Assembly (NCBI RefSeq): GCF_000236925.1
Contig: NC_016941.1
Location: forward strand, 2,046,001 to 2,110,000
Direction of reading: 5' to 3'
Length of the DNA: 64,000 bases
Origin: Staphylococcus argenteus
Lineage (GTDB): Bacteria > Bacillota > Bacilli > Staphylococcales > Staphylococcaceae
The notes beneath the pieces are model-generated. The model ran no database searches. It was not told where the DNA came from and saw only the letters and a list, made by a program, of their open reading frames with translations. Each line of letters opens with the position of its first letter. Position 1 is the stretch's first letter. The position numbers were made by a program, and so were the translations under genes. Below, in pieces: positions 5,809 through 7,180 of this stretch.

Positions 5809-7180
5809 ATGGGTCAAACATTATTTGACAAGGTATGGGATAGACATGTGTTATATGGTAAATTGGGCGAACCTCAACTATTATACATTGATTTACACCT
5901 TATACATGAAGTTACTTCTCCTCAAGCATTTGAAGGACTTAGACTTCAAAATAGAAAATTAAGACGCCCAGATTTAACATTTGCAACACTTGATCACAAT
6001 GTTCCTACCATTGATATTTTTAATATTAAAGATGAAATTGCTAATAAACAAATCACAACACTACAAAAAAAATGCTACAGATTTTGGTGTACATATTTTT
6101 GATATGGGCTCTGATGAACAAGGAATCGTGCACATGGTCGGCCCTGAAACAGGATTAACACAACCAGGTAAAACGATTGTTTGTGGCGATTCTCATACAG
6201 CCACACATGGTGCATTTGGGGCCATTGCTTTCGGAATTGGGACAAGTGAAGTTGAACATGTCTTTGCAACACAAACACTTTGGCAAACGAAGCCAAAAAA
6301 TTTGAAAATTGATATAAATGGCACCTTGCCTACAGGTGTCTATGCTAAAGACATTATTCTACATTTAATCAAAACATATGGTGTTGATTTTGGTACTGGT
6401 TATGCATTGGAGTTTACTGGAGAAACTATTAAAACTCTTTCAATGGATGGCAGAATGACTATATGTAATATGGCCATTGAAGGTGGTGCAAAATACGGCA
6501 TTATTCAACCTGATGAAACTACATTTGAATATGTTAAAGACCGCCCCTTTGCCGAGAACTTTTCTAAATCAGTCGATAGTTGGCGAGAACTTTATTCTGA
6601 TGACGATGCAATATTTGATCGCGTTATCGAACTTGATGTTAGCACATTAGAACCACAAGTAACTTGGGGTACAAATCCTGAAATGGGTGTTAATTTCAGC
6701 GAACCTTTTCCAGAAATAAATGATATCAACGATCAACGTGCGTATGATTATATGGGATTACAACCTGGTCAAAAAGCTGAAGATATCGAATTAGGTTACG
6801 TTTTCCTTGGTTCATGTACAAATGCTAGACTATCAGATTTGATTGAAGCTAGTCATATTGTTAAAGGTAATAAAGTTCATCCAAACATTACAGCTATTGT
6901 CGTTCCAGGATCTCGTACTGTTAAAAAAGAAGCTGAAAAACTAGGTCTAGATACTATATTTAAAAATGCCGGATTTGAATGGCGCGAGCCAGGTTGTTCA
7001 ATGTGTTTAGGTATGAATCCAGACCAAGTGCCTGATGGTGTACATTGCGCTTCTACAAGTAACAGAAACTTTGAAGGACGACAAGGTAAAGGTGCCAGAA
7101 CACATCTTGTATCCCCTGCTATGGCAGCGGCTGCAGCTATTCACGGTAAGTTTGTGGATGTAAGAAAGGTGGTTGTTTAA
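5809..7180 (+). pseudogene. leuC: Isopropylmalate isomerase large subunit, frameshifted in an A8 tract
   Basis: LeuC with LeuD interconverts 2- and 3-isopropylmalate using a [4Fe-4S] cluster. The reading frame from ATG 5809 (ribosome site GGGGGAG) encodes a normal LeuC N-terminus to ITTLQK and then stops after 97 residues. The rest of LeuC, from NATDFGVHIFDMGSDEQG onward, lies in the +1 frame and runs to the TAA at 7178-7180. The break falls in eight consecutive A at 6065-6072; seven A would restore one 456-residue protein. All downstream catalytic features are intact, including the cluster cysteines in LGSCTNARL and PGCSMCLGMNPDQ. As written, a full-length protein needs ribosomal or polymerase slippage on the A run. 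A homopolymer sequencing error is the main alternative. Confidence 0.9.

What the first reader, a model, noticed from the sequence alone, without database searches (positions are those of the whole stretch)
6064..6073. leuC is broken, or kept in play, by an A8 tract
LeuC is split after ITTLQK; the remaining 359 residues are intact in the next frame, and one A fewer in the run of eight A (6065-6072) restores a 456-residue enzyme. Neighbouring leuA, leuB, leuD and ilvA are undamaged and the downstream leuC frame carries no stops, so the change is recent or functionally bypassed. Options: a leucine auxotroph, a phase-variable homopolymer switch, slippage on A8 giving some full-length protein, or a sequencing error.
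Basis: seen in the sequence. Interest (0 to 1): 0.72.

Follow-up and report, generated by a model that had tools for sequence, protein, structure and literature searches.

The report
Leucine gene broken at A run
A gene needed to make the amino acid leucine is cut short by a frameshift at a run of eight A's in a Staphylococcus aureus-like bacterium; this looks like an ordinary, recent slippage mutation (or possibly a sequencing error) in a gene that some other staphylococci have also lost.

Summary
leuC (5809-7180) leaves its frame at A8 (6065-6072), ends as a 97-codon ORF at TGA 6100-6102, and continues LeuC-like and open in another frame to 7178. The genome is of the S. aureus complex (by recall the S. 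argenteus type strain). Of 83 genus genomes with a leuC match this is the only A8; 21 have A7, including the S. aureus representative; the two nearest sisters have an interrupted run. Against a sister, leuC is the only gene found broken over 54,786 aligned bases. leuC's branch changes (14 synonymous, 3 nonsynonymous) resemble its neighbours', so the loss is recent or not real. A paper lists a leuC frameshift at codon A89, just after this run, in five S. aureus strains (PMC10019231). Best reading: slipped-strand mutation making a recent leuC null allele. Programmed rescue is not supported: ribosomal -1 slippage enters the wrong frame and no downstream structure is seen. Sequencing error remains a serious rival; reads were not available. 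Phase variation is untested. Ordinary kind of event; modest interest.

The parts
6065..6072 (+). run of eight A at which the reading frame of leuC changes
5809..6102 (+). upstream leuC ORF, 97 codons plus stop: 87 LeuC residues and ten foreign residues
6100..6102 (+). premature stop TGA
6074..7180 (+). downstream part of leuC, open in the other frame to the native stop (368 codons)
6104..7180 (+). possible restart ORF, 358 codons, ATG one base after the premature stop
   Evidence: sequence; the representative of database cluster P0124 starts at the equivalent Met; that it is translated is inference
3217..4746 (+). leuA, intact neighbour
4749..5795 (+). leuB, intact neighbour
7182..7754 (+). 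leuD, intact neighbour
7769..9037 (+). ilvA, intact neighbour

Best explanation
A length change by slipped-strand mispairing in a run of A's recently put leuC of this strain out of frame. The product is a 97-residue N-terminal fragment; a separate 358-residue piece, if made at all by restart at ATG 6104, lacks the first 98 residues of the enzyme. The strain should therefore lack isopropylmalate isomerase and need leucine from outside, probably a small cost for a host-associated staphylococcus. Shown: the frame change, the intact neighbours, no second LeuC gene found, and no excess of protein-changing substitutions in leuC. Inferred: that the run really has eight A's in the living strain, the slippage mechanism, the loss of activity and the leucine need.
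For: Run and frames. Of 83 genus genomes with a leuC match, A8 only here, A7 in 21 including the S. aureus representative. leuC is the only gene found broken against sister G066 over 54,786 aligned bases, and 26 other A/T runs of seven lie in ORFs of the window, so the sequence is not generally poor at homopolymers. Branch changes 14 synonymous to 3 nonsynonymous fit a recent loss. No second LeuC: the PF00330 search of the genome gave one 901-aa frame and the two leuC pieces. leuC fs@A89 in five S. aureus strains (PMC10019231, Table 4, section 12 read); A89 is the first codon after the run in S. aureus LeuC. S. aureus takes up branched-chain amino acids and represses the operon (PMC5794164, abstract and passages).
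Against: No reads, no growth data and no second genome of the same species were available; a single-base artefact would look the same. The window was chosen because of this lesion, so the lack of others in it is weaker evidence than it seems. leuC shows no relaxed selection, which an error would explain equally well. The size and exact base of the published A89 frameshift were not seen. PMC5794164 shows that S. aureus can make leucine after a delay, so the pathway is not idle in that species.
Confidence: 0.67

Rival explanations
1. Sequencing or assembly error: leuC of the strain is intact and the run length in the deposited genome is wrong.
For: Homopolymers are where several sequencing methods err (general knowledge). 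The rest of leuC looks fully selected. Several truncated LeuC proteins in the database that break at this run carry further indels and look like error-rich assemblies (read by eye).
Against: No other gene found broken against G066 in 54,786 aligned bases in spite of 26 other A/T runs of seven in ORFs. The same codon is hit in a published S. aureus lineage.
Confidence: 0.2
2. Phase variation: the run shortens and lengthens often enough that leucine synthesis is switched on and off in populations.
For: A7 in S. aureus and A8 here. leuC fs@A89 in five S. aureus strains. 7 of 22 placed staphylococcal LeuC truncations in the database break at residues 86-87. A/T-run switching is described for agrA and mapW (PMC7911514, passages).
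Against: The two nearest sisters have an interrupted run, and most of the genus (62 of 83) has no run of seven or more. The other four broken leuC genes among 83 are broken elsewhere. No reversion or mixed population was seen. MutS and MutL frames are open, so no mutator background is indicated.
Confidence: 0.08
3. Rescue during expression: slippage of RNA polymerase or ribosome on the run makes some full-length LeuC.
For: The run reads A AAA AAA in frame, the shape of a ribosomal slip site, and the downstream frame is stop-free and conserved. Rescue at poly(A) tracts is known from insect endosymbionts (recalled).
Against: A -1 ribosomal slip enters a frame that stops at 6156, not LeuC. No downstream structure: z = 1.18, 182 of 200 shuffles fold at least as well. 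Eight A's is short for transcriptional slippage (recalled). A recent mutation also explains the conserved frame.
Confidence: 0.05

Closest known systems
leuC fs@A89 in S. aureus strains M19, M153-2, M392, M212, M209 (branch B3, ST764; PMC10019231, Table 4, section 12 read)
   Same: Same gene; the frameshift is placed at the codon right after the same A run.
   Different: Another species; the size of the indel is not given in what I read; it occurs among many pseudogenes in that lineage.
Adenine insertion near the end of agrA in S. aureus (PMC8768832, passages; its cited source Traber and Novick 2006 seen only as a reference)
   Same: Extra adenine in coding sequence of the S. aureus complex, put down to slipped mispairing, recurrent (561 genomes).
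   Different: Regulator, lesion at the end of the gene, delayed activation; here a biosynthetic gene is cut at codon 88.
Homonucleotide-run phase variation in S. aureus (agrA, mapW; PMC7911514, passages)
   Same: A/T run within an ORF changes length and turns the gene off.
   Different: Reversion was shown there; none is known for leuC.
Poly(A) frameshifts rescued by slippage in insect endosymbionts (recalled, no paper seen)
   Same: Broken frame at a poly(A) run in an AT-rich genome with the downstream frame kept.
   Different: No RNA evidence here, and the other genes looked at in the window are not broken.

Membership tests
LeuC, 3-isopropylmalate dehydratase large subunit | Match to curated LeuC models | tested here: met
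   the upstream piece matches TIGR00170 positions 1-90 (113 bits) and the downstream piece 84-466 (576 bits, cut-off 560).
LeuC, 3-isopropylmalate dehydratase large subunit | One uninterrupted reading frame of about 456 codons | tested here: not met
   TGA at 6100; 78 of 83 genus genomes keep the frame (with three rows judged by hand).
Slipped-strand frameshift at a homopolymer (agrA-like) | Lesion lies in a homopolymer whose length differs from intact relatives | tested here: met
   eight A's here, seven in the S. aureus representative; the nearest sisters have an interrupted run.
Phase-variable homopolymer locus | Reversible, high-frequency change of run length in one population | not testable with these tools
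   Needs reads or colonies; only one assembly of the strain was available.
Phase-variable homopolymer locus | Run kept in close relatives | tested here: inconclusive
   A7 in 21 of 83 genomes including S. aureus, but interrupted in both nearest sisters.
Programmed -1 ribosomal frameshifting | A -1 shift at the slip site enters the downstream frame | tested here: not met
   the -1 frame stops at 6156; LeuC lies in the other frame.
Programmed -1 ribosomal frameshifting | Stimulatory structure downstream | tested here: not met
   78 bases after the run, z = 1.18.
Transcriptional-slippage rescue at poly(A) | Mixed run lengths in the mRNA | not testable with these tools
   No RNA data were available.

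The most novel reading that the evidence does not exclude
The leuC A run is a shared mutable site of the S. aureus complex (A7 in S. aureus, A8 here, a frameshift at the same codon in an S. aureus lineage), with recurrent and possibly reversible loss of leucine synthesis, so that populations could switch between leucine makers and leucine importers during life on a host. This would tie branched-chain amino acid supply, and with it CodY signalling, to a simple repeat.
Probability: 0.08. Interest if true: 0.55.

Novelty: new member of a known kind. Interest (0 to 1): 0.24.

Why it matters
If real, a strain that serves as a species reference cannot make leucine by this route, which matters for metabolic models and for work on CodY and branched-chain amino acid signalling in the S. 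aureus complex. Together with the published S. aureus frameshift at the same codon it would mark a recurrent lesion site in a biosynthetic gene. If it is a sequencing error, a reference genome needs a note.

Tried and rejected
Programmed -1 frameshifting was rejected: wrong frame, no structure. A backup LeuC was not found: the only other PF00330 place in the genome is a 901-aa frame. A mutator background was not supported: MutS (869-aa frame) and MutL (672-aa frame) have no stops inside.

Control for truncations in the database: searches with the first 97 residues of LeuC and of LeuB each list 120 hits, of 3,571 and 587. With my filter (block of at least 46 residues at 93% identity or more to the S. 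aureus protein) 22 LeuC and 7 LeuB representatives could be placed. 7 of the 22 LeuC ones break at residues 86-87; five others break at residue 70. Of the 7 LeuB ones, three match LeuB to their own ends and may be contig ends; four break at residues 64-71, although S. aureus leuB has no A/T run of six or more in its first 510 bases. Cluster sizes (LeuB P0241 36 members; LeuC P0002 13, P0003 53) do not show that LeuC breaks more often. P0003 reads like another staphylococcus whose run is shorter (inferred from its residues), so a break there does not need a run of seven. The hotspot idea is therefore only weakly supported.

The count over 83 genomes was made by hand from the 89 rows after dropping six rows from other collections (L002, L003, L004, L005, L010, L058). 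My motif test passed 75 of 83 leuC frames; three of the eight misses (L124, L154, L162) are open for 458 residues or more and I count them as intact, giving 78 intact and 5 broken, this one included.

Literature: ten searches were answered. The whole-word search leuC, frameshift, Staphylococcus aureus listed ten papers; only PMC10019231 was opened from it. In those listings I saw no paper on this allele in S. argenteus; this is the open-licence library only. Find calls gave no occurrence of 'leucine' in PMC12959139, PMC7503304 and PMC5651615, and no 'frameshift' in the first two.

Full report
What is there. The window lies in a 2,762,785-base chromosome; the genome's second contig has 24,853 bases. 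It is of the S. aureus complex. Its leuC is 88% identical to that of G005, and 95% identical to those of two sister genomes, G066 and G058. G005 is S. aureus, since its leuC is 99.7% identical to a named S. aureus record. I recall the chromosome length as that of the S. argenteus type strain MSHR1132; no call confirmed the name. The operon reads ilvD, ilvB, a short gene (ilvN by position, not tested), ilvC, leuA, leuB, leuC, leuD, ilvA. ilvD is open up to the window edge. A short leader ORF rich in Ile and Leu, then a hairpin-like stretch and T run, precedes ilvD (read by eye); this fits the leucine-rich attenuator described for S. aureus (PMC5794164, abstract and passages).

The lesion. leuC starts at ATG 5809. 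Codons 86-87 run into eight A's at 6065-6072. Frame 0 then gives ten foreign residues and stops at TGA 6100-6102, 97 codons in all. The LeuC frame lies at offset 1 and is open to the native stop at 7178 (368 codons from 6074). Both pieces match LeuC models. An ATG of the LeuC frame sits at 6104, one base after the new stop, so a 358-residue piece could be made by restart. The representative of database cluster P0124 (358 aa, 370 members) starts at the equivalent Met. That such a piece, without the first 98 residues, has no activity is inference.

Relatives. leuC was matched in 83 of 84 genomes of the genus. The longest A run at the aligned place is eight in this genome only, seven in 21, five in 4, four in 45, three in 11 and two in 1 (after dropping six rows from other collections). 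The two nearest sisters read AAAGAAA. The frame is intact in 78 of 83 by my count. Besides this one, four are broken elsewhere: a stop at residue 236 in L132, and frame changes near residues 13, 100 and 425 in L126, near 175 in L142 and near 346 in L145. The S. aureus record NZ_CP077935 has a one-base lesion near residue 105 with A7 kept. So leuC decays now and then in staphylococci, and this run is only one of the places.

Is it an error? Against sister G066, 54,786 window bases aligned in pieces over 600 bases; parts such as 27209-31865 did not align. Gaps not divisible by three that lie at least 30 bases inside ORFs over 240 bases number 14 in three places: one in leuC; eleven in a divergent block at 26049-26171 inside an ORF that stays open; two at 44589-44614, a gene junction. 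leuC is thus the only gene found broken. Against G005 there are 13 such gaps: leuC, five pairs that cancel out, one at 44589, and one at 54010 in a 100-residue ORF that overlaps another gene. The ORFs hold 27 A/T runs of seven or more, 26 of seven and the leuC one of eight (ORF list with a few bounds set by hand). A sequence poor at homopolymers should have broken more genes, but a single error cannot be excluded, and the window was picked for this lesion.

Age. On this genome's branch the two leuC pieces, aligned apart, carry 14 synonymous and 3 nonsynonymous changes; leuA 15 and 6, leuB 11 and 3, leuD 3 and 1, ilvA 15 and 2, ilvB 18 and 7, ilvC 7 and 0. On the sister branch leuC has 8 and 0. 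Counts are small and no test was made, but leuC does not stand out, so the loss is recent or not real.

Recurrence. PMC10019231 (section 12 read) lists leuC fs@A89 in five S. aureus strains of branch B3 (ST764), and ilvC fs@E333 in all branch A and B strains but one. A89 is the first codon after the run in S. aureus LeuC, so the published lesion very probably lies in the same run; its size was not given in what I read. In the protein database, 7 of 22 placed LeuC truncations break at residues 86-87, but several of these carry further indels and look like assembly errors (by eye). P0002 (13 members) shows the break alone. The two largest full-length clusters nearest the query have 3,720 and 594 members. 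Member counts are sequences, not genomes, so no rate follows; the LeuB control does not show that LeuC breaks more often.

Mechanism. Slipped-strand mispairing in a run of A's is the simplest cause. Ribosomal -1 slippage on A AAA AAA leads to a stop at 6156, not into LeuC, and the RNA after the run folds no better than shuffles. Transcriptional slippage is possible but unproven; eight A's is short for it (recalled). MutS and MutL frames are open. No second LeuC was found, so if the allele is real the strain should need leucine. The cost may be small: S. aureus scavenges branched-chain amino acids, represses this operon, and was reported auxotrophic for Leu despite an intact operon; the same paper shows that it can make leucine after a delay (PMC5794164). 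Phase variation at A/T runs is described for agrA and mapW (PMC7911514, passages), and an adenine insertion at the end of agrA is the commonest agr frameshift in one survey (561 genomes; PMC8768832, passages). For leuC I saw no reversion data.

Verdict. An ordinary kind of lesion, probably real and recent, at a place where a published S. aureus lineage is very probably broken too. Reads of the strain would decide.

Noticed in passing
L126, L132, L142, L145 (genomes G055, G039, G057, G064): leuC is broken by other lesions in four more species-representative genomes.
   Followed up: partly
L002, 6001-7367 (NZ_CP077935.1): An S. aureus record filed as a 256-kb plasmid carries the ilv-leu operon, with leuC unannotated and broken near residue 105; it may be a chromosomal piece.
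   Followed up: partly
window 26049-26171: A block inside the PH-domain (bPH_2) ORF 25040-26632 is very different from sister G066 although the ORF stays open.
   Followed up: no
window 54609-64000: This stretch is 98.1% identical to G066 while other aligned pieces are 93-96%: strong conservation or recombination.
   Followed up: no
G000:C1:2040271-2041188, upstream of the window: A MutS-like match reads with two TGA and one TAG inside; it may be a broken MutS-family gene.
   Followed up: no
window 27209-31865: The kdp potassium-transport genes here have no aligned counterpart over 600 bases in the fetched G066 region.
   Followed up: no
window 9600-10250: Repeated copies of a segment that looks like the end of 5S rRNA with a spacer lie beside the rRNA operon (seen by eye).
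   Followed up: no
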